The notes below the pieces were generated by a model. It did no database searches and was not told where the DNA came from. It worked only from the letters and a program-made list of their open reading frames with translations. Below, one piece after another: positions 1,999 through 31,935 of a stretch of 64,000 bases of DNA (position 1 is its first letter; each line of letters starts with the position of its first letter). Both the position numbers and the translations under genes were made by a program. Origin of the DNA: Isoetes taiwanensis (Eukaryota > Streptophyta > Lycopodiopsida > Isoetales > Isoetaceae); contig JAJEKV010000001.1 of assembly GCA_021234155.1 (NCBI GenBank), positions 27,483,768 to 27,547,767 of the forward strand. The letters are read 5' to 3'.

Positions 1999-2025
1999 GC
2001 ATTAGGGCGGATTTGGGGTCTCAAA
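1999..2025 (+). repeat. E1 left terminal inverted repeat
   Basis: GCATTAGGGCGGATTTGGGG followed by TCTCAAA. It is the reverse complement of 18148-18174 with a single G/T difference. Confidence 0.88.
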
Positions 2026-2460
2026 GTGGCTCATATCTTGGGTTAAAGATTTCCACGTCAGATTTGCTACGACCAATCAGGTTTGCACCTCTTTTACGAA
2101 AGTCAGTATTAGTTGGCAGGTAGAAGAATGAGCAGGCTTACTTGGCATCCACATGACGTATTTTCATAGGGGATGCCTGCGCTTTTGTTGCAACCATATT
2201 AATGGCCCGTATTTTTCAGGAATCACTTCGCCGCCCAAAATATAATGGTGACTTTGACCGCCTACTGTCAGCGTCACCAATTGTCAAATTTTGGCGCCAA
2301 ACTTCTGTACTGTCACTCCAGCGCCTCTACGTACATCCTCTCCGCCTTCACTCCTCATCTGCAATCCATGTCTCTTATAATTTCTGTGTTCTTGCCTCAT
2401 TTACAGAACTCCCAATGTGACGAAGTGGGAGGTTTTGTCTCAATAGATTCGTGGGTGAGT

Positions 2461-3715
2461 ATGCTGCCATCAACGAGGGGCGAGCATAGAGTTAAGTGAC
2501 AAAGGCGATCAGACGTGCGAACACATTGGATAGGTAGGATAAAAGAGTTCAAGTTGAATTCTAGCGGCCAGAAAGTGGAAAGTATAACAATACGACATGC
2601 ATATACCCCTTCTGATATGGCCAAAGAGCTAATCTCCACCAAAAACAGCGTCCCAAAATTGCCCTCAAATGGTAACACCTTAATCGGATCACACGACGCG
2701 AAGCTGTCTGTCAGCTATTTAAGTGCATAGAAACAGTTTCACGTCGTGTGATCTCCTTATCTTTTCATTTCTTTCGTTGAGACATGTTTACAAACAAATT
2801 TATTGTGCAGGTTTATGTTTATCAGACGTCGTAGATGTCGTTCCGGCCGAAAGCATTAGTAGTGTCCTTGTCATGTATCACATAGACATCGGAATTGTCC
2901 TTTTCCAAGGTATGGATGCCGTGACCTTGCGGGGTATAGGCATCTGGTTTTACGGACATGATTACAACGTAAAGGTCAGGAAACCGAGCTTGAGGCCAGT
3001 TGAATTGCCCCCTTTAAGTGAACTTTGTAAGCCACAGACTAATGAGAACAATGTAATTGCAATGAAGAAATGCCTGGCTGACGAGGTGCAAGCGGGAATG
3101 TCTGAAAACGGAGGCGTGAGGATGAGTTTCAAAATCTTCACACTGTTTGAGGTATTTGCTAACATATTCCAGATGGCGTAGGAAGTTCGAAAAGCTCCGA
3201 AGACATATACGTGCTTTCTCCCCCCTGCCGATTTTGTGGATGGCTTATTTTTTGTTCCGACCTGGGATGTTCGATTCCACGAATCATCCGGTCAACTAAC
3301 AGAGTGCCGCGTAGATAAGTCCTCCTTTAAGTTCAGATACTTTCTTCCAAAACAATATTTATACATTAATTGTCAACTAGAACGAAGGAAACAGAAAAAG
3401 AGAGGCTGCACAACTTTTTGGGAGCCGTTTGAGGACCATAGCAGGCACTCCGATACGGTAGATATTCGAGTATGGCGAGGGGAGGAAGTCATTTATACAG
3501 CCACCATGGAAATCGAATGGCCATTATCAGAGCTAAGAGTGCTAATGGAGACAGAGGAGATTGCTAACGACTTCCATTATTTCATTTATAACATTAGGGT
3601 TGGCTACAGGCAAAAGGGATTGAATCTCGGTTTTTTATTTGTGTTTTTGTCCGATGTTTTTTTAGGGTTCCGTATTTTGTCCGATATTTTTTTAGGGTTC
3701 CGTACAATTATTTAA
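2461..3715 (+). pseudogene. BAH-like domain gene of E1 (interrupted)
   Basis: I place one gene here. An upstream frame (about 2461-2671) reads ...HWIGRIKEFKLNSSG... and joins in phase, across a 139-bp intron (donor GTAACA at 2672, acceptor TTGTGCAG ending 2810), to ...LCLSDVVDVVPAESI.... The pattern W-x-G-R-I followed by L-x-L-S-D-x-x-D-x-V-P-x-x-S-I resembles a BAH domain, a chromatin-binding fold. That comparison is from memory and is not secure. The frame continues to 3715 but is broken by TGA at 2497 and TAG at 3179. The second half (from about 3236) is basic and unrecognised. Hairpin 1 lies inside the intron. The true start and the end (3600-3715) are uncertain. Confidence 0.45.
2686..2753. 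repeat. E1 hairpin 1
   Basis: Arms GGATCACACGACGCGAAGCT and GTTTCACGTCGTGTGATC around a loop of about 28 bases. It lies in the predicted intron of the BAH-like gene. Confidence 0.9.
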
Positions 3716-3804
3716 AAAAGTTACCATCATATTTTACTTTTAACGCTCATCTGCTAAGAAGCCATGGCTAGAACTAAGTAAACCGCAAGGATCCATCCAG
3801 ATGG

Positions 3805-3815
3805 TATAATATAAG
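3805..3815 (+). promoter_or_regulatory. TATA-like element before the histone H3 gene
   Basis: TATAATATAAG lies 80 bases before the predicted ATG at 3895. Spacing and composition fit a pol II core promoter. Confidence 0.45.
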
Positions 3816-3894
3816 GCCAGGTGATTACATTAGTCCGCCTCCTTCATCCACATCTGAATCTGAAGTCTCTGATAGAGATTCTCCTCCTCCGACC

Positions 3895-4524
3895 ATGCCT
3901 AACAGAAGTTGCGGAAAAGAACTCCGCATGACAAACGGTGGGAGAAGCAGCTCGGCAATAAGTAGGGAGGTGCACTCCGGTTCGGAGACGGAGGATGAAA
4001 ATGTGAGAGATCATCGAGCAGAATATGACGCCGGATTAATTATTGGGCAGCCGCCTCTTCTTGCTCTTCCTGCTCCTCTTGTGGATGCGCCAGGACCTTC
4101 AAATCAAAGGAGGAGACCCAACGCTAGAAAGGGGAAGGCGGCCAGAAATGTGAGGAGACGGCCGGAAGAGTCGACCGAGCAACAGCCTGCAAATGCTGAG
4201 GTGGATGAGGGTAGTGGCCGGAAGCGGAAGACGAAGCCTGACATTAAAGCGCTTCGCGAGATTAAGAAGTATCAGAAGAGCACTGAGATGGTCATTCCGC
4301 GGCTCCCATTTGCGAGGCTCGTGAAAGAGATTCTGCAAGAGTATGGTGCGATACATCATACCAGTTACAGAATTCAAGCAACTGCCTTAAATGCTCTTCA
4401 AATGGCTTCAGAAGCAGTTGGTGTCGGTCTGTTCGAGGACTCGCAGCTTGGAGCAATACATGCCAAGCGGGTGACTGTCATGCCCAAGGACATGCGTCTG
4501 GTCTTACGCATAAGGGATCCTTAA
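3895..4524 (+). CDS. Divergent histone H3 (CenH3-like) encoded by E1
   Basis: A 209-residue intact frame. Residues about 115-209 form an H3 histone fold: [13 protein letters not shown] (alpha N), [10 protein letters not shown] (alpha 1), [11 protein letters not shown] and GLFED (alpha 2), then [13 protein letters not shown] (loop 2 and alpha 3). These are strongly H3-specific. The segment between alpha 1 and alpha 2 ([10 protein letters not shown]) is four residues longer than I recall for canonical H3, a property of centromeric H3 variants. The 112-residue tail lacks the ARTKQ and ARKS modification motifs and has a basic patch at 71-90. It should enter nucleosomes with H4; centromere targeting is inference. 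If TAA at 4522 were read through, the frame would run 22 more codons to TGA. It lies between hairpins 1 and 2, with its own TATA. Confidence 0.9.
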
Positions 4525-4718
4525 TACTATGGTCAAAATTTTATGGCTGAATACAACAAGAAGAAAGACTCCCCAGAAAAAAGGCCGTGAAGTGCCTTTG
4601 TGTTTTTTTTCATATGTATAATATTGTTTAATGTAATGGCTTTCCCTATGAGCTTCATCTTTCTTAGAAGCCTAGGTTCGCACTTTGTATTTTTTTTTTT
4701 TTTAAAGGTTATACGTGA

Positions 4719-4792
4719 GGATCACACAACGCGCAGCAAGCATTGTGCTTTTTTTTTTTTTTTGCACATACTAGTTTTCGCGTCGTGTGATC
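4719..4792. repeat. E1 hairpin 2
   Basis: Arms GGATCACACAACGCGC and TTTTCGCGTCGTGTGATCC, with a poly-T-containing loop. It separates the H3 gene from the acidic-protein gene. Confidence 0.9.
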
Positions 4793-4793
4793 C

Positions 4794-4820
4794 AACCCTA
4801 ACCCTAACCCTAACCCTAAA
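4794..4820 (+). promoter_or_regulatory. Telomere-like CCCTAA repeats (telo-box)
   Basis: Four tandem CCCTAA units ending in CCCTAAA, directly against hairpin 2 and about 130 bp before the acidic-protein ATG. In plants, AAACCCTAA boxes commonly sit in promoters of growth-linked genes. Whether this acts as a promoter box or is a telomere scar is not decidable here. Confidence 0.5.
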
Positions 4821-4948
4821 ATGTACGGACAAATCTCCCCACAACAGTTGTGTCCCCTTTCATAATCGACAACGGCTACTTGAGTTCGGGCGATGGCCAG
4901 CCGCCATCGCTCTCCTAAACATCTTCTTGCATTAAAATCAGCTTCGCC

Positions 4949-6430
4949 ATGGATTGTTATGTGAAGTTCCTGGAATGGTATGCATCTGCCCCACGTGACA
5001 ACGAGGAAGTTGCGCCGACTGCGATTTATCCGTTCTATTGTAAGGAGTTGGACATCATGGGAAACAGTGGCGAGCTTGGATGCTATCGCGAGGTTGCTTT
5101 AGCTTTCAGCCGGACCGCTTGGGCTCATCGGACGTCCTTTGCAGATGTTCCTGGGTCGTGGATTCCAAAACCAGCTCTAGAGGAAGCGGCTTCCCATTTG
5201 CAAGCAGCGAAGGCGTTTTTCAAGAATGCTGCGCAGGGGGCTCCTCCTGGCTGCGTCCTTGTACTTAAGAAGGTAACTTATATCTCTTTGCCATTTGCAT
5301 TCGCTAGTTATTGCATTCTGCTCGGTCAAACCGAAGATACACTGGAAACAATGAAATCTTTAAGCCAAGGGGGGTCAGTTATGTGTGATGATGCTGACTA
5401 TGACGTAGAAATGGAGATAGATCTACAAGAAGAAGAGCAAGAATGTAGGAGTTTTGACATCGACGCACTGGCCTTGGGTGAACCAAAGGAGGAAGATGAT
5501 TCTGAAGGTGATGAGGATGAGGATGAGGATGAGGATGAGGATGAGGATGAGGATGAGGATGAGGATGAGGATGAGGATGAGGATGAGGATGAGGATGAAA
5601 AGAAGTTGTCTGACATAACGCCAATTTTAGTGGAAGACAAAGAATACTTATTGCTAAGTGATATACTGAGGAACCCGTCTTTGTTGCGAATGTGTGCTAG
5701 GGAAGACGAGCTTATCAGTACCTTGGCCGAATGGGTAAACCTAGGCCTAGATTTTGTAGAGGACTTGGACAAAGAGATGTTTGAAGCGTCTTCTTATACC
5801 GGCAATGCTATAAAGCTTAAAGAAGCCTATGAGAGGCTGGAGTCTCGATATGCTCAAGAGGAGGTAAATCTGCCAATGGAAGAAGAATTCCAGCGTCTCC
5901 GTGCAAAGCTGCCAACAGGATCTACAGGTTTGGCAGGCCCTTCAGTCAATTGCAGCAGCATAAGCCTCATGGATGAGGAGAAATGTGAAGAAGATAACCT
6001 TGAGGGGTCTTATTTGTGGGAAGTAGGTGATTTTTCTTGCCGACATGCACGCAGGGGATAAGAAAGATTGAAGGACTCGACATTGTTACGATATATCTCA
6101 AGATTCGTTAATGGGGAGATAATCGTCTTCAGTAGAACTTTCAGTCCAAAAGGTGCAGAGTTTGTCTATTACATCCGTGCATTATGCATGTTCGGGAACC
6201 ATTCCCAATTGGCATCAAACACTAAAAGGGTGATAACAATTTGGCGGGATGTTGTGTTACAATATTTTGACGACCAAGCCGGTCGGCGGGCGAGCAATAT
6301 GTTAAATTTTTTCGCTGCTGGCTTGAATCACCCAAGGTTGGAAGCTGGGGTCGGTAACATGGGAGTCATTGCCTTGTTGAATCAGTGCGGCATGGGATTG
6401 AAAGAGCATGAAATTGACGACAAAGCTTGA
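4949..6430 (+). pseudogene. Acidic E1 protein with long Asp/Glu run (one internal stop)
   Basis: A frame of about 494 codons, open except for TAA at 6059-6061. Both parts are in the same phase, so this is one gene. The first 185 residues include an aromatic-rich segment beginning MDCYVKFLEWYASAP. A pure Glu/Asp alternation (about residues 186-217, from GAGGAT repeats) follows, then a helical acidic region. The segment after the stop is conserved-looking (...YISRFVNGEIIVF... to ...GMGLKEHEIDDKA) and ends at TGA. I recognise no family. Acidic runs are common in histone chaperones, so a chaperone role for the neighbouring H3 is a guess. An intron starting near GTAACT at 5273 is possible. Confidence 0.6.
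5508..5598 (+). repeat. GAGGAT tandem repeat encoding Asp-Glu
   Basis: About 15 perfect hexamers in frame with the acidic protein. Hexamer slippage keeps the frame, so length polymorphism is expected. Confidence 0.95.
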
Positions 6431-6531
6431 AAAATTGGAAGTTATATATTTTTGAACTTGTATCAGTAAAATTACTTATGTATAGATTGTATCACCGAAA
6501 TTATTAATAAAAATTATTTTATTTGTATTTA

Positions 6532-6595
6532 TTCACACCACGCGAAATACATCAGTCTGATTTTCTGACAAACACGAGCTTTCGCCTCGTGTGAT
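6532..6595. repeat. E1 hairpin 3
   Basis: Arms TCACACCACGCGAAA and TTTCGCCTCGTGTGA. It lies about 100 bp after the acidic gene's TGA. Confidence 0.88.
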
Positions 6596-6651
6596 ATTTC
6601 TCTGGAAGAAATGAAATATTATTGGAAAAAAACAATTAATTTATTTCTTCC

Positions 6652-6713
6652 TCACACGACGCCGAGAAGCAACGGTCCATCTTCCTGACCAACGGCATCC
6701 TTCGCGTCGTGTG
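6652..6713. repeat. E1 hairpin 4
   Basis: Arms TCACACGACGCCGAGAAG and CTTCGCGTCGTGTGA. It lies 56 bp after hairpin 3, so two hairpins share this spacer. Confidence 0.88.
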
Positions 6714-6738
6714 ACTCAAGCTACTATGAAATCTATCT

Positions 6739-6747
6739 TATAAATAG
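6739..6747 (+). promoter_or_regulatory. TATA box of coiled-coil paralogue A
   Basis: TATAAATAG, 95-100 bp before the ATG at 6842. Paralogues B and C have equivalent boxes at the same distance. Confidence 0.55.
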
Positions 6748-6841
6748 AAGACCTTCTATCTTGCCTTCGACCTCCGATCCTCTTCCGCCTTCCGCCTTCT
6801 GCTCATCTTCCACTTCTGCCTTCTGCATTCTCATCGCTCCG

Positions 6842-7242
6842 ATGGCATCTTCATCTCCCTCTAGCAAGCAAACACGCCAAGATAGCACTTCCCCGCGCCA
6901 AGAGCTCCCCGTGGACATCACCCTTGCAGTGGTGATGAAGAGATTCAAAGAGATCCACGATCAAAACAGCCGTCTTGACGCCGAGAAGATTGACGCGGTC
7001 GACAGATTAGCCTTCACGAGGGCGCTCCTGCATGAGCGAGACATTGAGCTCGCCGAAACATTCGCCATGTACCAAGAGGCGACTAGCCGCAGGGTCGAGG
7101 CAGTTGAAACTGCCCACAATATTTCGCAGGCCTTAGAAGAAAGAAATGGAGAAGAAGCTCCGAGTTGCAGAGGATGAACGCAGCTTTAAGGCTTCAGCTA
7201 GAGGATCATGAAGATCAGCTAGAGGATCATGAAGATCCCTAG
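6842..7242 (+). pseudogene. E1 coiled-coil paralogue A (frameshifted)
   Basis: The start MASSSPSSKQTRQ is followed by ELPVDITLAVVMKRFKE and a charged helix suited to a coiled coil. It is the sister of the genes at 14153 and 14993: all three share MAS-S-S, an E-(L/I)-P-x-(D/E)-I-L-type segment, and a helix ending in acidic residues. The first frame stops at 7177. Shifting frame near 7145 gives a better C-terminus (ELQRMNAALRLQLEDHEDQL...) ending at 7242, with a 15-base tandem duplication GATCAGCTAGAGGATCATGA. Function is unknown; oligomerisation is likely. Confidence 0.6.
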
Positions 7243-7356
7243 CCGTTCTATCTATGTATTTTTTGCTTCAATGAGAAGTTTTTGATGATATATATATTAT
7301 TGTTTTCGATGATATATTTATTCTCTTGTTCAAATGTATGTTTTGTTTTATTAAAA

Positions 7357-7423
7357 GATCACACGACGCGAAATGCCATGCTTGCAATTAGGTAGCAATC
7401 AATGGATTTCGCGTCGTATGATC
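7357..7423. repeat. E1 hairpin 5
   Basis: Arms GATCACACGACGCGAAAT and ATTTCGCGTCGTATGATC, one mismatch, with a loop of about 31 bases. It lies after coiled-coil paralogue A. Confidence 0.92.
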
Positions 7424-7692
7424 TCTATAATGTACACCTCGTTGTATGTACAAATTTCTGATTTATTAATAGAAAACTATCTGTAACACAAACATCTAGC
7501 TAGATTATGTGATATCTTGCAGGTAAATGCGAATTAGTCATATCTAGGTTTGGCAAGTGCTAGCACTCAAAGCACGTGGCATGTGGATGACGACGTCTAC
7601 TCGCATACGTGGCATGCGGATGACAACGTCATGCCAAGGACGTGGCATGTGTTACCACAATAACACCGTCTTTTGTACGACCAAAGGATTGA

Positions 7693-7697
7693 TTAGA
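7693..7697. repeat. Target site duplication TTAGA (left) of the Ty3/gypsy insertion
   Basis: TTAGA directly precedes the LTR start TGTTACG and is repeated at 13895-13899 after the LTR end GCATAACA. Confidence 0.9.
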
Positions 7698-9607
7698 TGT
7701 TACGAACCAAAATTTTAGTACCAAAAATTTCGATTTGTATTCACATCAAACCATCAGAGTACACAGAACAAGTACTGCCTCCCACGAGGCTATATACATG
7801 AAAACGACGTATACAGATAACAAGACGACAACACAAGATAACTAAATGCACACGTACGCCCCGCCAGCTATCAAACAACATGCACAATCTTCCACGTGTT
7901 AGTAACATGCATAAGAGTTATCCCGTAATGTCAACACGAAGCAATGACTAACGGACTGCAAGACACACATATGGAATCCACCACACACACCATAGCATCT
8001 GCCAAGCAGACACACCCCACCATATCTAGACAGTACGTCGTCTAGAACCCCCGCGCTAGTGGATCCAATGTCAGGAAGAAACTGCAGGCATTATAAGGGC
8101 GCAGGCTACTCGACTGTTGGTTCCGCATGCCACTGTCCCATACCAGCGACAAGCTTTACCTCACAAGTACCTCTCATTCTTATTTAGACAAGCCACACTC
8201 ATCCAATATCATGCCCTGCATAAAACTCCCTCGGGTAGCACTTGCTGTGCTCACCCCAGTACCACTAAGATATTGCAACAGTGGAACATCACTCCACAAT
8301 GGATACTCTGCTTTCACTGGGCTGTCGACAGGCATATGGTATTGTCCCATACCAATACCATTAGCCTACCTCACCAGCACTCACGAGGCATCCAAGAGAA
8401 CAAGCATAAGCTCATTCCCACAAGAGAGTAAGTAGAGGCTACAACTCCATATTAAATACGGACTGCTGACGTTTAAGACTTCTCTTAAACTAGTATCATA
8501 AGGTTTCAAGTAGAAGGAGCATAGTTCACAGAATCACATGGGTTCAAGGCAACATAATCTGTCCAGCAGTGTCCATCACAAAGCTGGCTTTATTTAGGGA
8601 GACCTCAATTCTCTAAGGTAAACCATCAAGACCTGCACCAAGCGCAGATCATCCACATGGAGCTGATAATCTACCAGCCCATGACTGTAAGGCTTACCGG
8701 AATTAAGTCCAATCGTGCTGCAACCCCGTGCACACAAATATTCGTGCCTTGAATCCTTCAATTCGATTTCTTATGCCCAATCTCCTTACTTCTGCCTCAA
8801 ACGCCTCTCTTCTCTCCTTTTTTCCTTGGCTTCCCGGTCACCTCTCATTTCCTGTGACCCGGCTGCTCAGAACCCAGGCCCTGCCAATCATGGCTAAGCC
8901 ATGTGGCACTGCCCCAAGAGGACAGGTCCTGCCAGACCCCAAGAGGACAGGTCCTGCCGACCCGGATTCTCTTATCCACAATCCGGCCTCCTGTGACAGT
9001 TCCAGCCTGGCTGGTTCTGTCGCATGATCCCAAATGATGGGAACCCCTGCCAACGTGGCAGAGCCACGTGGCGGTATACTGGCAGCAACACGCCCTGGTC
9101 GGGAGCAGATCCAGTGGCCCACGCTTTCACCCCGGCCAGCCTGTTACAGGTTTGTGGTTCCACCACGTTCTAACAGCCCCGCTTTAAGGGTGCTCACGTT
9201 TTATAAAGGTCCAATGGTTCATATAACCATTAAAGGTATTTGTTACCTTAGGTAAAAGTTTTATTGGCATGACTAGTTTCCTTAGGATGTATATTCCTAA
9301 TTTTGCTCACATTATAAGTCCTATTTCTAAGCTGACAAATATAACACCACATATATTGCCTTGTTATTGTTTATTCCCAAGAGACAAACTACTTAACGGC
9401 CAAAGTTATTCACCATAGCCATACAACAAGGCAACCCAGTCCCCTAGTCTGTCCGACCATGGTGCACCACTCCGCCTTAAGCTAGACTAGGGACATGCGA
9501 CCATTACACATCTATGGCCCAAATACCATAGAAAATTCCATTATGCCAAACATTAGCATGCATGCAAAATTTTAAACAATGGCCTGTAAAAATATTTAGG
9601 CATAACA
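7698..9607 (-). repeat. 3' LTR of the nested Ty3/gypsy element
   Basis: Begins TGTTACGAACC and ends GGCATAACA on the plus strand. The last 450 bp match 13528-13894, apart from a block around 9254-9340 missing from the right copy. Confidence 0.85.
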
Positions 9608-9633
9608 TTACTCCCCCCTTGGGATTCTTGTCC

Positions 9634-12600
9634 TCAAGAATCGGCTCCAGACCATTGAGCCATAACATCCGAATATTGAGTCATGAAACGACGACTCTCC
9701 CATGTCGCCTCTGAGACAGGTCTATGTTTCCATTTCACCAGAAATTCCATCTGGTCTCTTTGGCGGATCCGCACTATCCGGGAATTCAATATTCTTTTAG
9801 GGGTAGGGATTCTATCCAACTCCACCATGTGTTCCTGAGAAGGCACAACATTCGCAGCTTTCCCTAGAGCTGGTCGCAACTGGCTCACATGGAAAACTGG
9901 ATGAATGTCCACATTCGGTGGAAGTTGCAACTTGAAGGCAACATCACTATATTTCTTCAAAATTTTATAAGGACCAGGGGAGAGCTTTGGTTTCTTTCCT
10001 GCAAGCAATGGCAATATTGCTTTTCTTTTCAGATTTGCAGGGAAGGCCACACGAAGGTACACCATCCGACCTTCATGCAGCTCGATCGGGGCTCTCGACA
10101 AATTGGCACGTGCCCTTGCCCGATCCTGGGCCTGTCTCATATGCAGTTGACACAACCCAAGTGTCACATCCATGCCTTCAAGCATATTTATAGCAGCATC
10201 AGTTTTCAGCCCATCAAAGCCAAGCGATACAGGTCCTCTGGGATTTCTCCCAAACATCGCCACAAACGGGCTAGTTTTGATGCTCTGCTGGAACCCATTA
10301 TTGTAAGCAAACTCCACAATTGGCAAATAGTCCTCCCATCTGGACTGCTGAGTGGCCACATAAGATCTCAGCATATCCTCCAGAATTTGGTTCACTCTTT
10401 CAGTTTGCCCATCCGTTTCTGGATGATCTCCACTAGAGAACTGAAGAGTGCATTTTAATGCAGAGAACAATTCACGCCAGAAATTCCCAGTGAATTTCAC
10501 ATCTCGATCGCTTACAATAGCTTTAAGCAATCAAAAAATAGGAAATACATGCTGCATATAGGCCTTGGCCACCGCCAAGCCATCAACATTCTTTGTCAGA
10601 GGTATAAAGCGTGCATATACTTCGTCAACCTGTCCACAATGACAAGTATCTGAGTATAGTGATGCACAGTACGAGGCAACTTCACAATGAAATCCATAGA
10701 GATTTCACTCCACCTCTCCTCTGGCACAGGCAGAGGTTGCAGAAGTCCTGGAGTCTTGCCTCAATCCGCTTTAACCTGCTGACAAGTCTCACAGACTTTT
10801 ACATATTCCTGCACATCCTCCTTCAAGCTAGCCCAGTAAAACATTCTTTTGAGCAATTCATAAGTTTTCCATTCACCCCCATGCCCAGCATAAGGTGCAT
10901 CATGAAATTCGCTCAATAATTGCTTTCTCAATGTGTCCACAACAGGAACATAAATACGTCCCTTATGATACCAGAGTCCATTCTGGATATCCCAAGCATC
11001 AGGTAACTTGGATAGGTGCTGCATACTCAAAATATAGGGAAACCATTAATTTGTGACACCAAAGCAATTTCACATTGAATCATCACATTTACTTCCCGAA
11101 CCCTAGAAAGAGCATCAGCAGCAGGATTCTTTTTCCCGGGAAGATGTTCAACATGAAAATGAAATTGAGAAAGAAAGTCCAACCATCTTGCTTGCCTTGG
11201 ACTTACTTCGGCCTGGCTTTGCAGGAACTTCGAAGGTTTATGATCGGTATAGACCACAAACTCACACTTATTGCGGAGATAATATTTTCAGACTTTGAGC
11301 GCATGAACCATTGCCAGTAACTCCTGCTCATAGGTGGAATAGTTCTTCTCAGCAGCATTGAGTTGGCGACTTTCATACGCCACTACTCTACCATCCTGCA
11401 TGAGAACAGCACCAATGGCATAACCACATGCATCCGTGTAAACCTCATAAGGTTTACTCATGTCTAGAATCAACAGAATAGGCGCTGAGGTTAGCAACCT
11501 CTTCAGCATATCCATTGCCTGCTGCTGCTTCCCCGTCCATTGCCACTGGAAGTTAGTTTTCAACAACATAGTTAAAGCAGTTGCAATCTTGGCAAACTTC
11601 CAGACAAATCTGCGATAATAACTGGCCAATCCCAAGAAACTACGCAACTCAGATACATTCTTTGGCACAGGCCAAGACTGAATTGCCTCCGTCTTCTTGG
11701 GATCTACAGCTACACCTTCAGCAGATACAATGTGGCCCAAATATTCCACCTGTGCTTTCAAAAATTCACACTTTGACATCTTTGCATACAACTTATGCTG
11801 TCTGAGCAGAGTTAGCACAGAACGCAAATGATTCAAATGCTCCTCTAAAGTTTTGCTATACACTAGGATATCATCTAAAAATACTTCAACAAAAGTATCA
11901 AGACATCCTGCAAAAACCTCATTCATCATTCTGGAAAATGTAGCAGGAGCATTCGTTAGTCCAAAAGCCATCACCAAAAATTACTCTTATCTGATGATAA
12001 CCACTGCGCAAATCCAACTTAGAAAAATATTTAGCTCCTGTTAATCTATCCATAATCTCGTCAATCCTAGGTAAGGGGTACCTATTCTTGATCGTGATCT
12101 TATTGAAGGCACGATAATCAATGCACATCCGCATTGATCCATCCTTTTTCTTGACTAGAATGACAGGAGCACCATAAGGGGATTTGCTAGGTCTCACAAA
12201 CCCTTTGGCTAACAGCTCAAGAACCTGCTTTTTAACCTCCTCTTGTTCCAGTATGGACAATCTATAAGGGCTACGAAACACAGGTTTGGATCCAGGCTCT
12301 AAATCAATCTCATGTTCAATCTCTCTACTAGGTGGAAGGCCTTCAGGCAGTTCCTCAGGGAACACATCCTGAAATTCATACAACAGATCCTGCAACTCTT
12401 TTTGGCCTTTTGAATTCTCTATGACCTCACTATCAAAACTCAAAAGCAGGATAACATTCATCAATAAATAGAAGAAAACATCGATTGGAAGATTTACGTA
12501 CCAGTTTCTTGACCTGAAGCGACGACACGATCTTGGAAGCTCATAGATCTCCCGTCCATCGTGCTTCAGCGTCACCTGGTGAGTATTCCAATCTATTGCA

Positions 12601-13535
12601 GTAGGCTTAACCCGCTGCAACCATGTTATCCCCAGCACCACATCATACCGGCCAACATCCAAGAGGTCAAAGTCAAGCTTTTCCTGGTGTCCTTGAATAC
12701 ACAAGGGCACCCCAACAGCTTTACGATCCTCCACCTAAGAATCATTCACAAAAGGCCCATCTACCTTGTACTTATTAGTCTTTACACAAGGTAGGTGCAG
12801 TTCTTCCACCAACTTCGAAGATATAAACATGTCAGAAGAGCCACAATCCAATAACACAACAACGTTTCGGCCCATGATTCTGCCCAAGAATGTAATCACA
12901 CGTCCAGCAAACATGTCCATGATGTCTTTGCTTGCGGGCTTATCCAACGTGCATAGCTCTTCCATGGCAATGGCTGAAACCGTCTTAGATTCCAATACTT
13001 CCTCAGCCTTTTCAGTCACGTTTGCTTTCTTGTTATCAGCTTTTTTGTTCTGTGGCTGAGAGCATTCACGACTAATATGCCCAGGCTCCCCACACCTATA
13101 GCAGAAAATCCCCTTCCTGGGACCACCGGACTTAGAGTCCGCCTTTTGCTTCTTAGACTCTCCACCTGCAGACTTAGGCTTAGGCTGCTCAGACTTTTTC
13201 TTCTCGAAAAACCTGTTTTTCTTCTTTGAGAACTTCCGGGACGTCCTCTTAAAGGACTCATCCTCTTCTCCAAGCTGACGAGCCAACATCATTGCCCTCT
13301 CAAAATCCTCGGGCTTCAACCCGATTATCTGCTTCTTGAGAGCAACACTGGATCGCCCACCTAGGAAGAAATCAACCTGCCGAGCCTCGGACAAGTCCCC
13401 AACCCTGTGGATATAACCCCATACCTTATTGATATAAGCACTAAGAGAACCTGTCTGCTTACAGTACCGCAGCTTTTCAAGCGCATCACGAGCACCATGC
13501 TGAGGTGCATACTCCCCAATAAAGTACTTCCACCA
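9634..13535 (-). pseudogene. Ty3/gypsy gag-pol remains
   Basis: Read leftward from 13535. A truncated gag has a zinc knuckle (CYRCGEPGHISREC) near 13090. A protease segment has LLDCGSS near 12855. The reverse transcriptase has [10 protein letters not shown] near 12010 and FLDDILVYS near 11875. RNase H starts [13 protein letters not shown] near 11430. The integrase has a zinc-finger end at CETCQQ near 10790 and a core with SDRDVKFTG and HPETDGQTERVNQ near 10440-10520. A C-terminal chromodomain (EFLVKWKHRPVSEATWES) lies near 9715. Interruptions include TAG at 12735, frame changes near 11975, and TGA at 11288 where Trp fits. It cannot be autonomous. Chromodomain integrases usually steer insertion toward heterochromatin. 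Confidence 0.92.
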
Positions 13536-13894
13536 CGTTCTAACAGCCTCGCTTTAAGGGTGCTCACGTTTTATAAAGGTCCAATGGTTCATAAAACCAT
13601 TAAAGGTATTTGTTACCTTAGGTAAATATAACACCACATATATTGCCTTGTTGTTGTTTATTTCCAAGAGACAAACTACTTAACGGCCAAAGTTATTCAC
13701 CATAGCCATACAACAAGGCAACCCAGTCCCCTAGTCTGTCCGGCCATGGTGCACCACTCCGCCTTAAGCTAGACTAGGGACATGCAACCATTACACATCT
13801 ATGGCCCAAATACCATAGAAAATTCTATTATGCCAAACATTAGCATGCATGCAAAATTTTAAACAATGGTCTGTAAAAATATTTAGGCATAACA
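13528..13894 (-). repeat. Truncated 5' LTR of the nested Ty3/gypsy element
   Basis: Collinear with 9158-9607 of the left LTR, with one internal deletion. It abuts gag codons at the TTCCACCACG junction, so the primer-binding site is lost. Confidence 0.85.
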
Positions 13895-13899
13895 TTAGA
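13895..13899. repeat. Target site duplication TTAGA (right)
   Basis: Direct copy of 7693-7697, immediately after the LTR terminus GCATAACA. Confidence 0.9.
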
Positions 13900-13931
13900 T
13901 GGGCCTGCATACCGTACGGCTAGGATCTGAC

Positions 13932-13998
13932 GGATCCCATGATGCGAACAGAGGCTACCGTTGCCTAATTGCATGCTATAATTTCGCCTCGTAGGATT
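13932..13998. repeat. E1 hairpin 6 (degenerate)
   Basis: Arms GGATCCCATGATGCGAA and TTTCGCCTCGTAGGATTA: same layout and length as the others, with more substitutions. Confidence 0.65.
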
Positions 13999-14054
13999 AT
14001 TACACAGACTTTATCGCTACTCGCAACCGTAGATTCCAATGTATCTGTAGTTTC

Positions 14055-14063
14055 TATATAAAA
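14055..14063 (+). promoter_or_regulatory. TATA box of coiled-coil paralogue B
   Basis: TATATAAAA, about 95 bp before the ATG at 14153. Confidence 0.55.
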
Positions 14064-14152
14064 CGTCGGACGCCATTGTCTTCTCCTATCCGCCATCTCT
14101 TGTTCTACCACATCCGCCCTCAGCCATCTCCCCTTCGTTCTCATCTCTTTCA

Positions 14153-14574
14153 ATGGCCTCCAGCTCCAGTTCCATCCCTGCCGAGATCTTGTCTCAAGTT
14201 CTGGTGAAGGAAATTAAGAACATTTGTGATGAAGCTGAGGAATAGATCCGCCTTCTGAAAGAAAAGAATGATGAAGACGTCGCCAAGCTGTTTGCGGCAG
14301 AGGACAAGGCCGCCTTCTATAGGGAGGTGATTTTAGTGTGCGACAATCAGCGGGCTGCCATAGACCGCGAATTGCGCGCCACGAGATCTAACCTCCAAGA
14401 GAGGCTTAGGGCTGCAATCAAAGCAGGCGAGGCTAACTCGATGAGCCCGAAGATAAGGTTGCATAGTATGAGAACATGGTTGCGGGGCAGACAATCATGT
14501 TGGAGGAGCAAAAAAAAATTATCAGTGCCCTCCAGGAAGAGCTTGCCCGGCGATCAGAGGCATCGGGCTCCTCC
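14153..14574 (+). pseudogene. E1 coiled-coil paralogue B (interrupted)
   Basis: The start MASSSSSIPAEILSQVLVKE is followed by a long charged helix. TAG at 14243 interrupts the frame where Gln would fit. The frame resumes (IRLLKEKNDEDVAKL... to ...NLQERLRAAIKAG), then needs a shift near 14440. It then reads LDEPEDKVA, another TAG, and YENMVAGQT...ISALQEELARRSE, ending at TAG (14572-14574). Related to paralogues A and C. Function unknown. Confidence 0.6.
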
Positions 14575-14708
14575 TAGAGGGGCCCATCTTTTTTTTAATG
14601 TTTGTAATTATTTTGTTTTGCAATGGAAAAAGTTTTTGAAAAATGTGCCGAATATTACATTTCCTATTTTTAATTTTCAATATCCGTGGTAGAGAGAATG
14701 ACAAGACA

Positions 14709-14772
14709 GATCACACGAAGCGAAACCCTTCATAAGCTTTTAAAGCGCGTGTGCAGATCTCGCGTAGTGTGA
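14709..14772. repeat. E1 hairpin 7
   Basis: Arms GATCACACGAAGCGAAA and TCTCGCGTAGTGTGAT. It lies between paralogues B and C. Confidence 0.87.
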
Positions 14773-14897
14773 TACAGTGTACTTAGAATAGTTAATGTGT
14801 TCCAGCGGACAGTACCATTAATGTGTTCTAGCGGACAGCCGACAGAATCCGCTCGACACGTGCGACAACATATTTAATATGTTCAAGCGCTAATATG

Positions 14898-14904
14898 TAT
14901 AAAT
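14898..14904 (+). promoter_or_regulatory. TATA box of coiled-coil paralogue C
   Basis: TATAAAT, 95 bp before the ATG at 14993, the same spacing as in paralogues A and B. Confidence 0.5.
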
Positions 14905-14992
14905 TGAGGTCCTTGCATTGTGCTCCTTCCGTCGGTTAGAGTCTTCGCTCCCTTCACTTATATAATCTTAACGTCCCTCCCATTTATCATCT

Positions 14993-15433
14993 ATGGCCTC
15001 CACATCCTCTACCGCTGATAAGGAAAAACGCCCGAGGATAGAACTCCCTTCTGACATAGTGTTGGGTGTTCTAATGAAGAGGTTGAAGGAGCAAGACGAT
15101 CTTCTAAAGAGGAATGCCGTTACAATTCAGCAGAAAGAAGAAGAAAATGAATTCAACCTTCTCATGCTTCGTAGCTAGGAGAGGCATATCAGGCGGTTGA
15201 ACAGAAGGCTGGATAGGAGGGGAAGGTTATGCCCCAACAACTGCACTGAGGTGGTTATGACAGCAACGAGGTTGCTAATTTAGGCATAAGAAAATGTTGT
15301 GGTAGTGGGACAGGAGCGGGACATGTACAAAGAGATAGTGGACAGATTGGAGGAACGTTTGGATAGGGTGATTGCGGGCTTGAGGAGAAGAGACGAAGAC
15401 GAAGACGAGGACGAAGCTGATGATGAACAATGA
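14993..15433 (+). pseudogene. E1 coiled-coil paralogue C (three in-frame stops)
   Basis: A single 147-codon frame with no shift, running from MASTSSTADKEKRPR through ELPSDIVLGVLMKRLKEQDD to an acidic tail (RRDEDEDEDEADDEQ) and a TGA stop. It is interrupted by TAG at 15176 and, near 15280-15288, by TAG and TAA one codon apart. Each is one C-to-T change from a Gln codon. It is the closest relative of paralogue A (shared LP-D-I and MKR-KE). Probable coiled-coil protein of unknown role. Confidence 0.65.
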
Positions 15434-15514
15434 GTCGTTGTATTTTGTTTTTCAATATAACAATTTTCACAACTTTAATCAAAAGTAACCTTTTTTTATT
15501 ATTATCTTGTAAAG

Positions 15515-15581
15515 CATCACACGACGCAAAGCCACATAAATGCAAGCAATAGCGAACTTCACTGTTCACGCCGTATGATCC
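15515..15581. repeat. E1 hairpin 8
   Basis: Arms GCATCACACGACGCAAAG and TTCACGCCGTATGATCC. It follows paralogue C. Confidence 0.85.
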
Positions 15582-15587
15582 AAATAA

Positions 15588-15653
15588 GATCACACGACGC
15601 GAAGCTACAGTTGTGCAAACGAGGTTGGAGGCAAGTACTCCGCGTCATATGAA
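15588..15653. repeat. E1 hairpin 9
   Basis: Arms AGATCACACGACGCGAAG and ACTCCGCGTCATATGAAC, 6 bp from hairpin 8. The pair sits between the converging 3' ends of paralogue C and the minus-strand gene. Confidence 0.85.
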
Positions 15654-15688
15654 CATACTACATATTACAAGTATACTTTACCGATCCT

Positions 15689-17496
15689 TTATCTCTTAGA
15701 TCTCCACTGTTGTGATGCTAGTGGGGCCCTAGAATATTGCCAAGCAAGTTTCCGTTTTCTCTTCAGCATTATGCCAATGATGTTAACGACTTCTGGGTTG
15801 CTCCTTAAAGCGACCTTCTTGTCGTATTTAGCCATCGCCCTTCTATAAAACTACTCTGTCATCTGTCTTAGAGGGTTGGTTCCCACATTTCCATCCCCTC
15901 TTTGAGTGTTACGATGAAAGGCTATTTTAGCTTGTTTATGCGACTTCTCCATGCCTTGTGCACTCCACACTGCTAGGCTTCCACACTTCCTAAAAAACCA
16001 AGGTGCATGAGCCCAAAAGATGTGCAAGTAGTGCGTGACTTCACTCTCTCCCCATGCGTCTATGTAAGCCCTAATAAATTTGTTATTCGCTTGCACGAAC
16101 ATTTCTGCATCTTCTCTTGTGAGATCCATTCTCTGAATGTATGGGAACAATTCAGACAATGCATCCCATGCTTTTTTTTTCCTCAACGCCGAACGAACGC
16201 CATCTGTGCGGTCCTGCTCCGCATCAACCAGCAATTTTCCATGATGACAACGGATACCCTCTCATACTTCTCAAGCTTCGTCAGTTCCATTTCATCCAAT
16301 TTTACGCAAACTTCAATTTCACCATTAGTTTCTGCAACTGTTAAGTCATAATATTTGACAAGAAATTGTAAGAGACTAACTAGGCCAACCCAAAGATTAT
16401 TGCGTTCATTCATTCCAACTATATCACAACAATCCTTGCCATTCTTATCTTTTATGGCTATGGCAGGACCAGCACATTCAACGTGGTGCATCTCTCCTAA
16501 TATGGCATACACCATCTTTGTCTAGTAACCCTTGTATTCTCAACAATTTGTGGACGTGGAGCGAATACTTTTTTTGTGCCCATTCTTTTCAACTCTTCGT
16601 GGAATGACTTGAATAGAGAATAGTAACCAAACCTACTGATGCCTACATCGTCACAAACAGTCTGTACGTCTGTCGCTTCTAGCTTCTTGTAGATCTCTCC
16701 TAGTACCATTTCCAATACCATCTTCTTGAGAGAAGAGTTGTAGGGTTGACAAATCATGTCCACTATCTCCCTGTTTGTCGCTAGGTTCTTCATTACGTAA
16801 CCAAGATTTCTTCTAGTTTTCCCAGATCTTGATTGGCCTTTGCTAGTGTTGTAAACGGACTTTGTGGTCATGACCCTGCGTCTGAATGCACCTGATCCAA
16901 ACTTCAGTTCCTCTATCGGTAAGTGCTTCTTCCTTTCTCGCAAGCCAAGGGGTGTTTTCTTCAAATTCTTTAACCTACATTGAAGCCCAAAGTTTGCTCT
17001 TTTGAGCTCTTGGATCTTTTCTTGCAGCTGTCCTATCACCAATTTGGACTTCGTATCTCAAAGAGGTTTCCCTCTCGAAGCCGTCATTCCTTTCCTTCAT
17101 TACAGTGGAGTAATGAAGCGAGAGAAAAAAGAGCTGTTGGTTTAAGTTATAACTCTCTTGTGACAATCGAAAGCAGCTCATCTCAAGGAACTGTATTCGA
17201 TTCTGAATGCCTTCATCCTCTCTCAATCTCTCACAATATCCCAGGAGGCCAGAATTACCGTCACCACAAAATCGGACTAAACTTGAAACGTCCCGAAATG
17301 ACGGTTTCTTGCCACTCAACGGATCCAATGGATATAAACTGCCATCCGCCCAGATGTCGACACTTTTTGAGCCTGCAAGATGCAACATGTCGAGGTCTAA
17401 GTTCTTATTTTTTAGACCTCGTTTTTTGCAATTGAAGACTGGAGCATATTCGTGAGTCAGTTGGATCCTTATCCACACATCATTTGGAGCTTCCAT
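15689..17496 (-). pseudogene. E1 transposase-like gene (frameshifted)
   Basis: I place the start at MEAPNDVWIRIQLTHEY (17496), because the upstream frame runs through hairpin 10. The protein of about 600 residues is split by frame changes near 17030, 16505 and 16215 and by TAG at 15851. It ends at TAA (15689-15691). The order is an N-terminal unknown region, a coiled coil (QLQEKIQELKRANFGLQ), a helical middle (DDVGISRFGYYSLF), then a strand-like MNERNNLWVGLVSLLQFLV. The C-terminal block HYLHIFWAHAPWFF...WSAQGMEKSHKQAK...HRNTQRG is typical of an uncharacterised family I recall from invertebrate and alga-like genomes. An RNase H-fold transposase is an inference from position and motif style. 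It is the only E1 gene on this strand. Confidence 0.5.
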
Positions 17497-17503
17497 ACCT
17501 CGT

Positions 17504-17569
17504 GGATCGCACGGCGCGAAATTAAGGTGTACAATTTGTATGCCCCAGCCCAATTCGCTTCGTGTGAGC
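17504..17569. repeat. E1 hairpin 10
   Basis: Arms GGATCGCACGGCGCGAAATT and AATTCGCTTCGTGTGAGCC. It lies immediately upstream of the minus-strand gene start, mirroring the hairpin placement at the other genes. Confidence 0.85.
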
Positions 17570-17667
17570 CGAACGTCCGTACTAGCCTTGTTTTTGAAAT
17601 TTACAACGTGCATATGGAAATCGAAAAGTCCATTCTCCTACAATCCATGCTTTTATACATTAAGCAA

Positions 17668-17840
17668 ATTCAAATTTCGAATTGTAGGGGGCGGGAAGCC
17701 TGTATTGGGATGAAGTAAAGATCCCGGTTTACGAACTTTTAAGGCGCAGTCGCGGCGCCTCGAAATGAAAGTCTGATACAAAGCTTCAACCTACACATTC
17801 AAATTTTGAAATGTAGAAGGCGGGAAGCTTGTATGGGCAT
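17668..17840. repeat. Pair of 43-bp direct repeats upstream of the E1 minus-strand gene
   Basis: Units at 17668-17710 and 17798-17840 share CAAATTT(C/T)GAA(T/A)TGTAG and GGCGGGAAGC(C/T)TGTAT, 130 bp apart. They lie between the transposase-like gene and the right TIR. They could be promoter or subterminal binding sites. Confidence 0.7.
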
Positions 17841-18147
17841 GGCCTCTAAATGAAAATAGCGCAAGACAAGAATCGGTGACGCGCACGCTTGGTATCTGAC
17901 AAACCAAGAGACACCGTCATGTGTTGCCGGTATGCTATAATGCAAGTGGCTTTTTAGAAGCACCACGTGTTGCATCAGTCTATCTGACAACCAACAGAAT
18001 TAAATACATATGGCACCATGAATGTGCGATCCCCCTTATTCTGAGAGAATATTCCAAGTAAATCTGTAATTATGAGAGTTTGGTATCCTAGGTGGCATGG
18101 GAAAAAAGGAGCGGAAATATGACGTGGAATGGCTGATAGGAGGATGT

Positions 18148-18174
18148 TTTGAGACCCAAAATCCGCCCTAATGC
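18148..18174 (-). repeat. E1 right terminal inverted repeat
   Basis: Reverse complement begins GCATTAGGGCGGATTTTGGG, matching the left end with one mismatch. Confidence 0.88.
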
Positions 18175-19537
18175 CAATTGAATTACATCTAAAGCCCTTT
18201 ACAATTTTCCTTCGCAGTAAAAAGAAAATTCCTTGTCTCCTGTCCCTATACTATTACCAATGCATTCCTAAGCACTTCAACAACTTCGTAACTAGAATTT
18301 AGCTGTTCCTTTTTTATCCTACTTTTGTAGGGCTTTGGCAAAGCTTAGTCTTCTGGTATTATACAAGCCATGAGGTGATTTCTGCTATTGTTTCATTTTT
18401 TTTTGCAATTTTGTAGCATTAGAAGTTATTTTGGTGAATAGCTACGGTTTATCTACTTTGTTATTTATTTTGTACACCAAAATCATTTTCACATGCTCTG
18501 ATGGAGTTTATTGCCTGCCACAGTACACCGAGTTTTGACAAATATGTACAACTTTAAACTGGTTGGAACACAAACACTTGAAAAAACATGGCATTGATGG
18601 TTCATCCTCATGAGTGCTCTAGCAATGGGTCTTAAGAATCATGCCACAATCAATCATGCCTGAAGCAAAAACTCTAGAATATACCTGGCAATTATGTAGT
18701 GCCCCTTCTTGTACAATGTGGAAGTGTATTTCATGCACAACAGGCTTTCAAAAGGTTACCTTGTCAAAATGAATGGTTATAGACCCTTTTCATGCGAGGT
18801 GGCTTGAATCTGGACAATCTCCAACTTGTACAGAAAATGTAGAGGATGACTGCATATGTCCTAGAAGTTATACACTTGTCCTAGAGAGAAAAACATTGAG
18901 ATGGAGAATTGGGGCCTTTGTCCTTCTGTTGATATAGATTATGCACTTTAGCTATCTTGGATCTTTTTCTTCTAGATGTTTAATCTTATTCTGTATAGAT
19001 GCATATGACATGGACAAACTTGTGGAACATGGATAGCTTCCCAGTTCTAAGAGCGAAAATCATAGCTAGGATTATAAGGCTGCAGAAGAGTACTTCCATA
19101 TATACTTGTATGCCTTCTGCAATCATCATATCCAGCAATGATAATCTTCCACTAATTAATTAGACTTGATCTTACAACCATAGTTCATAATCATCATAGT
19201 AATAGATATATCCCAAGAATTTTTTCAAACTTTTTATATACAATTAATATGGTTCCTTATTAAGTAGATATTTGATAGATCCCATCCTGTTTGATGGATC
19301 CAACTTTGAAAGTACTACGGTCTTCATGTATCCAATCCATTTGTAACACTAATCTTTGAACCAGCTTTATTGAAATCCATGTGCAGGCCAAAACCACCTA
19401 GCAAAGACAAGCCATATGATCCGCCAAGCCCTGTTCATATGATCCGCCAACCCTGTTTTAACAATATGCATTCCCCACTAGTGCAGCCAGAAGTCTAAGA
19501 TCTAGCAGACGTAAAAAAACTATAACCAAGCACTAAA
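18175..19537. other. Spacer between E1 and E2
   Basis: AT-rich, with no sustained coding frame and no recognisable repeat. Probably host DNA. Confidence 0.6.
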
Positions 19538-19562
19538 AAGTCGTATTTAATTAAAGTGGGAC
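19538..19562 (+). repeat. E2 left terminal inverted repeat
   Basis: 25 bp, perfect reverse complement of 31907-31931; preceded by TAAA. Confidence 0.92.
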
Positions 19563-20455: not shown

Positions 20456-20708
20456 CTTTCTCGACTCAGCGAGTCGAAAAGGCCCATAAAAGTCAAAGTA
20501 CAACCATTCTCATTAGAATATGGTTGCATCCAATCACACGGAAAGCATACAAATGCTTTTGTCAACGAGACAATCAAGCATGCCTTTCTCGACTCGCGAG
20601 TCGAGAAAGGCCTGAAAAACCCAATGTACAAGCATTATCATAATAGATTGTACAAGCATTTCATCAACACGACAAGCATGCCTTTCTCGACTTCGTGAGT
20701 CGAAAAGG
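20456..20708. repeat. Three E2 palindromes downstream of the phosphatase gene
   Basis: Copies at 20456-20479, 20583-20610 (a perfect 28-bp palindrome with core TCTCGACTCGCGAGTCGAGA) and 20681-20708 (imperfect), spaced about 100-125 bp. They lie beyond the phosphatase stop, toward the left TIR. Confidence 0.93.
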
Positions 20709-20810
20709 CATCAAAACTCAATATACAAGTATATTCATTACAAAATGGTCAATACATGTGTTCACGTTCGATTACAATATTCACACAATTTGACTATCTG
20801 AAAGCAGGGG

Positions 20811-21651: not shown

Positions 21652-21685
21652 CTGAAATGATGACATCTGTCAGAAAGGAAACGAG

Positions 21686-25026: not shown

Positions 25027-25039
25027 GAAGAAAGGATGG

Positions 25040-26060: not shown

Positions 26061-26069
26061 CCTCTTGTA

Positions 26070-31931: not shown

Positions 31932-31935
31932 TAAA

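What the first reader, a model, noticed from the sequence alone, without database searches (positions are those of the whole stretch)
3895..4524. A transposon-borne, CenH3-like histone H3
An intact H3 histone fold lies inside the TIR-bounded element E1 while almost all neighbouring genes are broken. It has a four-residue-longer loop 1 and a long unmodifiable-looking tail lacking ARTKQ and ARKS, both features of centromeric H3 variants. A mobile element encoding its own H3 variant could package its DNA specially, mark itself, or bias chromosome segregation. Seen: frame, fold motifs, loop length. Known: long loop 1 marks CenH3. Inferred: function.
Basis: partly seen in the sequence, partly recalled or inferred. 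Interest (0 to 1): 0.92.

Follow-up and report, generated by a model that had tools for sequence, protein, structure and literature searches.

The report
Transposon-carried histone H3 lacking lysine 9
A many-copy jumping element in what looks like a quillwort genome carries its own unusual histone H3, kept by selection, whose tail begins like normal H3 but has isoleucine in place of the silencing site lysine 9, so the element may use it to resist being shut down.

Summary
The H3 fold is real and lies in a TIR-bounded DNA transposon, but the window copy is a damaged member of a family. The host assembly fits Isoetes taiwanensis by size. The genome gave 210 matching stretches, several of which can belong to one copy, with 150 of 7978 candidates scored. 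Nine of 30 fetched loci have an uninterrupted frame of 273-326 aa. IHPGGVRP follows where canonical H3 has KSTGGKAP; residue 9 is I in 26 of 27 and K in none. All nine intact proteins share the longer loop 1. The diverged copy L022 against eight other intact copies gives fold pN/pS 0.22-0.30 and tail 0.35-0.46; neutral simulation left 0 of 1000 frames stop-free. So selection has kept this H3. The fold has some CenH3-like residues but is not shown to be a CenH3: ARTKQTAR is kept and it does not group with plant CENH3. Best reading: an element-encoded H3 that cannot carry H3K9 methylation, i.e. an anti-silencing histone (mechanism inferred). Precedent: H3-carrying hAT elements in fungi.

The parts
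1999..18174 (.). Element A: TIR-bounded DNA transposon that carries the H3 gene; holds a nested Gypsy retrotransposon
   Evidence: TIRs; same architecture at other loci, a complete 10.76-kb copy at C1019 and a 5.8-kb derivative bounded by both TIRs at C1028a
1999..2025 (+). Left TIR; sister copies read CATTAGGGCGGATTTGGGGTCTCAAAATGGC or nearly so, no clear target-site duplication
18148..18174 (-). Right TIR
3764..4590 (+). H3 gene copy homologous to the family protein (273-291 aa in seven of nine intact copies); damaged at both ends in the window
3791..3793 (+). Codon for mature residue 9: ATC (Ile) where canonical H3 has Lys
3778..4524 (+).
4237..4521 (+). Histone H3 fold with four-residue longer loop 1
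2689..2751 (.). Paired inverted 14-mer TCACACGACGCGAA / TTCGCGTCGTGTGA, arms 35 nt apart
4722..4790 (.). Paired inverted 14-mer downstream of H3, arms 41 nt apart
   Evidence: similar relative place in six of eight other regions
6533..6594 (.). Paired inverted 14-mer
6652..6714 (.). Paired inverted 14-mer
7359..7421 (.). Paired inverted 14-mer
13935..13996 (.). Paired inverted 14-mer, degenerate (3 mismatches in each arm)
14711..14772 (.). Paired inverted 14-mer
15517..15578 (.). Paired inverted 14-mer
15590..15652 (.). Paired inverted 14-mer
17507..17567 (.). Paired inverted 14-mer just upstream of the transposase-like gene
2723..3715 (+). Element gene upstream of H3 (two open frames split by one stop), no Pfam family
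4949..6430 (+). Element gene of unknown family with an acidic stretch (MDCYVKFLEWY...), one in-frame stop in the window; found downstream of H3 in other copies
6842..7177 (+). Small gene MASSSPSSK..., one of several similar small genes
14153..14590 (+). Small gene of the same kind, with a stop
14994..15434 (+). Small gene of the same kind, with stops; open in the C1019 copy
15851..17498 (-). Transposase-like gene broken over several frames; weak RAG1-like region
9158..13897 (-). Nested Gypsy LTR retrotransposon, matched LTR parts 98% identical

Best explanation
Element A is a multi-copy DNA transposon of (inferred) Isoetes whose cargo includes a histone H3 variant. SHOWN: the H3 sits at the same place in other copies, is intact in some, and has evolved under purifying selection. 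Its first 16 mature residues align without gaps with canonical H3 except K9I, S10H, T11P, K14V and A15R. INFERRED: the protein is made when the element is expressed, pairs with host H4, enters chromatin (perhaps preferentially the element's own), and gives nucleosomes that keep the K4 context but cannot be methylated at K9 or acetylated at K9/K14. This weakens H3K9-methylation-based silencing of the element in cis. A trans effect on the K9 methyltransferase, as with K-to-M and K-to-I histones, is possible but less certain.
For: Many matches and intact frames in the genome. Same distance to the left TIR and flanking inverted-repeat pairs in other copies. Copy L022 against eight other intact copies: fold pN/pS 0.22-0.30, tail 0.35-0.46; pooled over all pairs of the nine, fold 0.28, tail 0.49. 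L022 and L023 against L029: dN 0.08 and 0.11 at dS 0.49 and 0.55 in the fold (L023 itself has a stop). Neutral simulation at that distance: 0 of 1000 stop-free, aa identity mean 0.43, highest 0.52, against 75 of 90 fold positions identical between L022 and L029. I at residue 9 in 26 of 27 and K in 0 of 27 readable loci, while ARTKQTAR is exact in 23 of 27. K27M and K27I, but not the other substitutions, lower K27 methylation in trans (PMC12128920; PMC6562757; passages). [quoted passage not shown]
Against: No expression, protein or localisation data. S10 phosphorylation or S10D next to K9M relieves methyltransferase trapping (PMC5030085), and here S10 is H, which speaks against the trans-trapping version; that paper does not mention K9I. 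L022 has T instead of K at residue 4, and L015 has T at residue 9. Pairwise ratios among very close intact copies are erratic, 0 to 2.12; the C-terminal extension shows no clear constraint (0.47-2.42). Stops were skipped in these counts and loci were picked by protein similarity, which biases ratios down. That Isoetes silences transposons through H3K9 methylation is assumed from Arabidopsis (recalled).
Confidence: 0.42

Rival explanations
1. Structural or targeting role: the element's H3 serves transposition itself, e.g. packaging excised element DNA, holding the transposase at nucleosomes or guiding insertion; K9I is incidental.
For: Long Arg-rich linker tail and C-terminal extension; fold modelled like nucleosomal H3; element carries its own paired sites.
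Against: The near-invariant ARTKQTAR-I-HPGG end looks like a modified histone-tail signal rather than a generic DNA-binding tail; the C-terminal extension is weakly constrained.
Confidence: 0.2
2. Captured H3 carried passively: copies look intact because they come from recent bursts of a few source elements.
For: Many copies are broken, the window copy among them; capture of H3 by hAT elements without known function is published for fungi (PMC6710886); ratios among very close copies are erratic.
Against: Open copies about 0.3 apart at synonymous sites (L022 against the rest) with low pN/pS; 0 of 1000 neutral simulations stay open.
Confidence: 0.17
3. CenH3-like function: the element's H3 recruits kinetochore factors and biases segregation or marks the element.
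For: Loop 1 longer by four; PFAR (47 of 49 listed homologues with ARTKQT tails have Q there); CenH3-HMM difference +1.1 to +5.9 bits, against -28.8 to -12.5 for 29 canonical folds; 0 of 300 and 2 of 300 equally diverged random H3s reach +1.1.
Against: ARTKQTAR kept; nearest relatives in the tree, P0030 and P0002, score on the canonical side (-7.7 and -7.4); not placed with plant CENH3; low end of the CenH3 score range; long loops also occur in three ARTKQT-tailed H3s; no opportunity for centromere drive in lycophytes according to PMC11687628.
Confidence: 0.1
4. Dispersed host H3 gene family, moved by segmental or retro-duplication, that the transposon merely flanks.
For: The genome has many H3-like loci, and a second multi-copy H3-fusion family of unknown carrier.
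Against: Distance of 1877-1883 bp to the left TIR in four of the eight regions fetched, the downstream inverted-repeat pair in six of eight, and the same neighbour gene in copies read.
Confidence: 0.04

Closest known systems
H3L-carrying hAT elements of Pyrenophora tritici-repentis (PMC3538342, passages read)
   Same: DNA transposon with TIRs carrying a transposase, an ORF of unknown function and an H3-like gene; many near-identical copies; H3L matches neither H3 nor CenH3 completely; ESTs seen
   Different: Fungus, about 5.6 kb, recognisable hAT transposase, authors suggest drift; here a plant, about 10.8 kb, unrecognised transposase, purifying selection across diverged copies, K9I (residue 9 of H3L was not seen by me)
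hAT elements with H3-like sequence in Pseudocercospora and kin (PMC6710886, passages read)
   Same: Captured H3 amplified to hundreds of copies by a DNA transposon
   Different: Those copies are inactivated by RIP; an H3 transcript or retrocopy was captured
Helentron of Culex with H4 and H15 (linker histone) fragments (PMC4067079, passages read)
   Same: Histone gene pieces inside a transposon
   Different: Fragments with stops and frameshifts; rolling-circle element
K-to-M / K-to-I oncohistones (H3K27M/I, H3K9M; PMC6562757, PMC12128920, PMC5030085, passages read)
   Same: A modifiable lysine of the H3 tail replaced by a hydrophobic residue in a partly kept context
   Different: Those are point mutants of otherwise normal H3; this one also has S10H, a long extra tail, a longer loop 1, and is encoded by a transposon; no effect on methylation has been tested
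CenH3 (CENP-A, plant CENH3)
   Same: Longer loop 1, PFA/SR, diverged fold
   Different: ARTKQTAR kept, not grouped with plant CENH3, many copies on a transposon

Membership tests
Histone H3 | H3-type histone fold | tested here: met
   Pfam Histone 5e-31 and PDB H3 hits; model
Histone H3 | H3 N-terminal tail motif ARTKQTAR | tested here: met
   Exact in 23 of 27 loci with a readable start (of 30); not in the window copy itself, which has a stop there
Canonical H3 | K9 and ARKS motifs | tested here: not met
   Residue 9 is I in 26 of 27, T in 1; no ARKS in the nine intact proteins
CenH3 | Loop 1 longer than canonical H3 | tested here: met
   +4 residues; not exclusive to CenH3, three of 12 long-loop homologues have ARTKQT tails
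CenH3 | Loss of Q in PFQR (recalled as a CenH3 trait; checked on the set) | tested here: met
   PFAR; Q in 47 of 49 listed homologues with ARTKQT tails and in 26 of the other 71
CenH3 | Fold closer to CenH3 than to canonical H3 | tested here: inconclusive
   HMM difference +1.1 (window) to +5.9 (L022), low end of the CenH3 set
CenH3 | Diverged tail without ARTKQTAR (recalled; some plant CENH3 keep ARTK) | tested here: not met
CenH3 | Phylogenetic grouping with plant CENH3 | tested here: inconclusive
   Not grouped in either tree; union with At/Os CENH3 AU p 0.185 and 0.0486; host CENH3 not found
CenH3 | Centromere localisation | not testable with these tools
   needs immunolocalisation or ChIP
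Known DNA transposon superfamily | Recognisable transposase family | tested here: inconclusive
   RAG1 model 14.7 bits against a cut-off of 25; PDB RAG1 E 0.22; no homologue at E 0.01 or below
Known DNA transposon superfamily | TIRs and target-site duplication | tested here: inconclusive
   TIRs found, no consistent TSD in two complete copies plus four single ends
K-to-M/I inhibitory histone | Methylatable lysine replaced by M or I in kept context | tested here: met
   ARTKQTAR-I, but S10 beside it is H
K-to-M/I inhibitory histone | Lowers methylation of that lysine on other H3 | not testable with these tools
   needs expression; S10H is a caveat

The most novel reading that the evidence does not exclude
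A transposon family encodes its own K9-lacking histone H3 as a counter-defence against H3K9-methylation silencing, keeping the K4 context and, possibly, blocking the methyltransferase in trans. A second multi-copy family in the same genome, with the H3 fold fused to a new domain and no ARTKQ tail, could be an independent case of the same strategy.
Probability: 0.33. Interest if true: 0.95.

Novelty: new variant of a known kind. Interest (0 to 1): 0.78.

Why it matters
Some transposons carry anti-silencing proteins (recalled), and fungal transposons have captured H3, but I found no report of an element whose conserved cargo is an H3 with the silencing lysine replaced (searches; mostly listings, open-access library). 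If true, the arms race between transposons and chromatin silencing has reached the nucleosome itself. It also gives a natural K9I histone to compare with tumour oncohistones, and a genome in which to ask why H3 genes are multiplied repeatedly.

Full report
What was checked. The frame at 3778-4524 (+) encodes an H3 fold: Pfam Histone 5e-31 and H3 chains in the PDB at 9e-29. Aligned to Arabidopsis H3.1 (recalled sequence), 55 of 87 fold positions are identical and loop 1 has four extra residues. AlphaFold2 with 56 sequences gives the four H3 helices (115-128, 136-154, 162-189, 197-206), block means of pLDDT 86-92 from residue 141 on, and no structure in the first half.

The start. At 3764 stands ATGGCTAGAACTAAGTAAACCGCAAGG, i.e. 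MARTK, stop, TAR: the canonical H3 start with a stop at codon 6. The degenerate pattern for it has one match in the window and none in 100 shuffles. So the claim that ARTKQ is missing came from reading a damaged copy.

The element. TIRs of 27 nt (26 identical) lie at 1999-2025 and 18148-18174. Inside are ten pairs of inverted 14-mers TCACACGACGCGAA / TTCGCGTCGTGTGA (up to three mismatches in an arm) whose arms are 33-35 nt apart in nine pairs and 41 in one; the 16-mer search gave 17 matches where 0.16 were expected. They lie between or next to the element's genes. A nested Gypsy element occupies 9158-13897; its matched LTR parts are 98% identical. The genes beside H3 have no Pfam match above the curated cut-off. 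A minus-strand gene at 15851-17498 is broken over several frames and has a weak RAG1-like region: Pfam RAG1 14.7 bits against a cut-off of 25, and RAG1 chains at E 0.22 with a sister copy. It is my candidate transposase; its superfamily is open.

The host. The window lies in a genome of 1,658,258,908 bases in 1110 contigs. The published Isoetes taiwanensis assembly has 1658.30 Mb in 204 scaffolds and 909 unplaced contigs, three pieces more (PMC8566536, passages read). A U-box gene in the window has its best hits in Diphasiastrum, liverworts and Selaginella, at 50% identity or less. I infer I. taiwanensis or its very near kin.

The family. With the window H3 as query, the genome gave 210 matching stretches; a copy can give several, and only 150 of 7978 first-look candidates were scored, so the true number of copies is not known. 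Thirty loci were fetched. In 27 of 30 the start region is readable (not in L018, L026, L028); ARTKQTAR is exact in 23 of these 27, residue 9 is I in 26 and T in one (starts were located with a 30-base reference that includes this codon, six mismatches allowed). Of 25 loci left after dropping the window copy and L027, which has a local frameshift, mature residues 1-16 read ARTKQTARIHPGGVRP with at most two departures at any position. Against canonical ARTKQTARKSTGGKAP this is K9I, S10H, T11P, K14V, A15R. Nine of 30 loci are open from this start through the fold to a stop (273-326 aa); seven of the nine share a C-terminal extension, EYYGQNFMAEYNKKKDPPEKRP in its commonest form, absent from canonical H3; L003 and L004 end differently. 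Against its sisters the window copy has a stop at codon 6, a small frame-shifting insertion, a shorter upstream region and an early stop.

It travels with the element. Eight loci were fetched with longer flanks. A left TIR with at most two mismatches is found in four of eight (a fifth has four mismatches), a right TIR in four of eight. Where both left TIR and start were found, the distance is 1877-1883 bp. The pair of 14-mers about 1 kb downstream of the H3 start is present in six of eight. C1019 is bounded on both sides (10.76 kb). C1028a is a 5.8-kb copy bounded on both sides that lost much of the right part, yet keeps an intact H3 (locus L011). No consistent target-site duplication was seen.

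Selection. Over the fold, pooled pN/pS among 26 of 30 loci (four with fewer than 90 aligned codons dropped, stops skipped) is 0.32; L022 and L023 against L029 give dN 0.08 and 0.11 at dS 0.49 and 0.55. L022 is open, L023 has a stop. Among the nine intact genes, L022 against the eight others gives 0.22-0.30 in the fold, 0.35-0.46 in the tail and 0.47-2.42 in the C-terminal extension; pooled over all pairs 0.28, 0.49 and 0.52. Against this: among very close intact copies the ratio is erratic, from 0 to 2.12, few changes being involved. A neutral simulation of the 291-codon frame at 32% substitutions left 0 of 1000 stop-free, with aa identity mean 0.43 and at most 0.52, while L022 is open over 284 codons and shares 75 of 90 fold positions with L029. 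The search favours good protein matches, which biases ratios down, but I do not see how it could explain this.

H3 or CenH3. Of the 120 listed homologues, 49 have an ARTKQT tail and 47 of these have Q in PFQR; of the other 71, 26 have Q; the family has A (one search counted three recalled H3s in as well). Twelve listed homologues have a loop at least three residues longer than the usual 13, and three of the 12 have ARTKQT tails, so loop length alone does not mark CenH3. HMMs of 29 canonical and 37 CenH3-like folds were compared; set membership rests on tail and PF[ASF]R, so P0004, with a canonical tail, fell into the CenH3 set and behaves canonically. Leave-one-out differences are -28.8 to -12.5 for canonical and +1.1 to +21.2 for 36 of 37 CenH3-like folds; P0030 and P0002 give -7.7 and -7.4. 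The window gives +1.1, sisters +1.2 to +5.9. H3.1 changed at 32 random positions with a random loop reaches +1.1 in 0 of 300 and 2 of 300 runs. So the fold leans towards CenH3, but slightly. In trees the family joins two environmental H3s, P0030 and P0002 (100/82 with P0030, where the bootstrap had not settled; 96/88), within the part that holds Arabidopsis and host H3 (90/92). A clade with At/Os CENH3 is not rejected in the large tree (p 0.185) and borderline in the small one (p 0.0486); a pair with Arabidopsis H3.1 is not rejected in the large one (p 0.144), and a clade with Arabidopsis H3.1 and host H3 alone is in the small one (p 0.0128), which leaves out other canonical H3s and so does not test descent from H3. 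Fold search is tied. I do not file it as CenH3.

How it may work. Shown: a conserved, element-borne H3 that keeps the tail end up to R8 and has no lysine at 9 and 14. Known: K27M and K27I, alone among substitutions, reduce K27 methylation in trans (PMC12128920 and PMC6562757, passages); H3K9M blocks K9 methylation on wild-type H3 by trapping Clr4, and S10 phosphorylation or S10D relieves it (PMC5030085, passages; K9I is not mentioned there). Inferred: the element's H3 forms nucleosomes that resist H3K9 methylation; the cis version needs nothing more than incorporation, the trans version is weakened by S10H.

Precedents. A hAT element of Pyrenophora carries an H3-like gene in 26 very similar copies, with ESTs, matching neither H3 nor CenH3 completely (PMC3538342, passages). 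hAT elements in six other fungal genomes carry H3-like sequences inactivated by RIP (PMC6710886, passages). A Culex Helentron holds histone fragments (PMC4067079, passages). So H3 on a transposon is a known kind; purifying selection across diverged copies, a plant host and K9I are new as far as my searches show (open-access library only).

A second lead. Searching the genome with Arabidopsis CENH3 gave 150 matches with 150 of 7073 candidates scored, many with open frames of 400-567 aa. Two were read (L047, L048): about 300 residues without a Pfam family of note, then a tail without ARTKQ and a canonical-like H3 fold, placed beside host H3 (L049) in the tree (93/80; the pair itself 100/100). 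They share 85% identity over 2 kb including flanks. Whether this family is transposon-borne is not shown.

Noticed in passing
19537-31932: A second TIR-bounded stretch (26-nt perfect TIRs AAAGTCGTATTTAATTAAAGTGGGAC) with 13 copies of the palindrome TCTCGACTCGCGAGTCGAGA (up to 2 mismatches) and an NLI-phosphatase-like gene at 20811-21791.
   Followed up: partly
32-698 and 33029-33581: Large inverted repeats (78-87% identical by piece) with CACATGCA microsatellite that enclose both elements; possibly the ends of an older, larger insertion.
   Followed up: no
L047, L048 (G000 C1045 and C985): Multi-copy family in the same genome: about 300 aa of unknown domain fused to an H3 fold without ARTKQ tail; several listed loci share a 463-aa open frame.
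   Followed up: partly
2689-17567, ten places; also in L031-L044: Pairs of inverted 14-mers at a nearly constant 33-35 nt spacing with unconserved spacer, placed between or next to the element's genes: probably paired binding sites of an element protein.
   Followed up: partly
L039-L040 (C1028a): A 5.8-kb derivative bounded by both TIRs keeps an intact H3 gene while losing much of the right half.
   Followed up: partly
6842-7177, 14153-14590, 14994-15434: Three similar small genes (MASSS.../MASTSS...) in one element, apparently duplicated cargo of unknown function.
   Followed up: no
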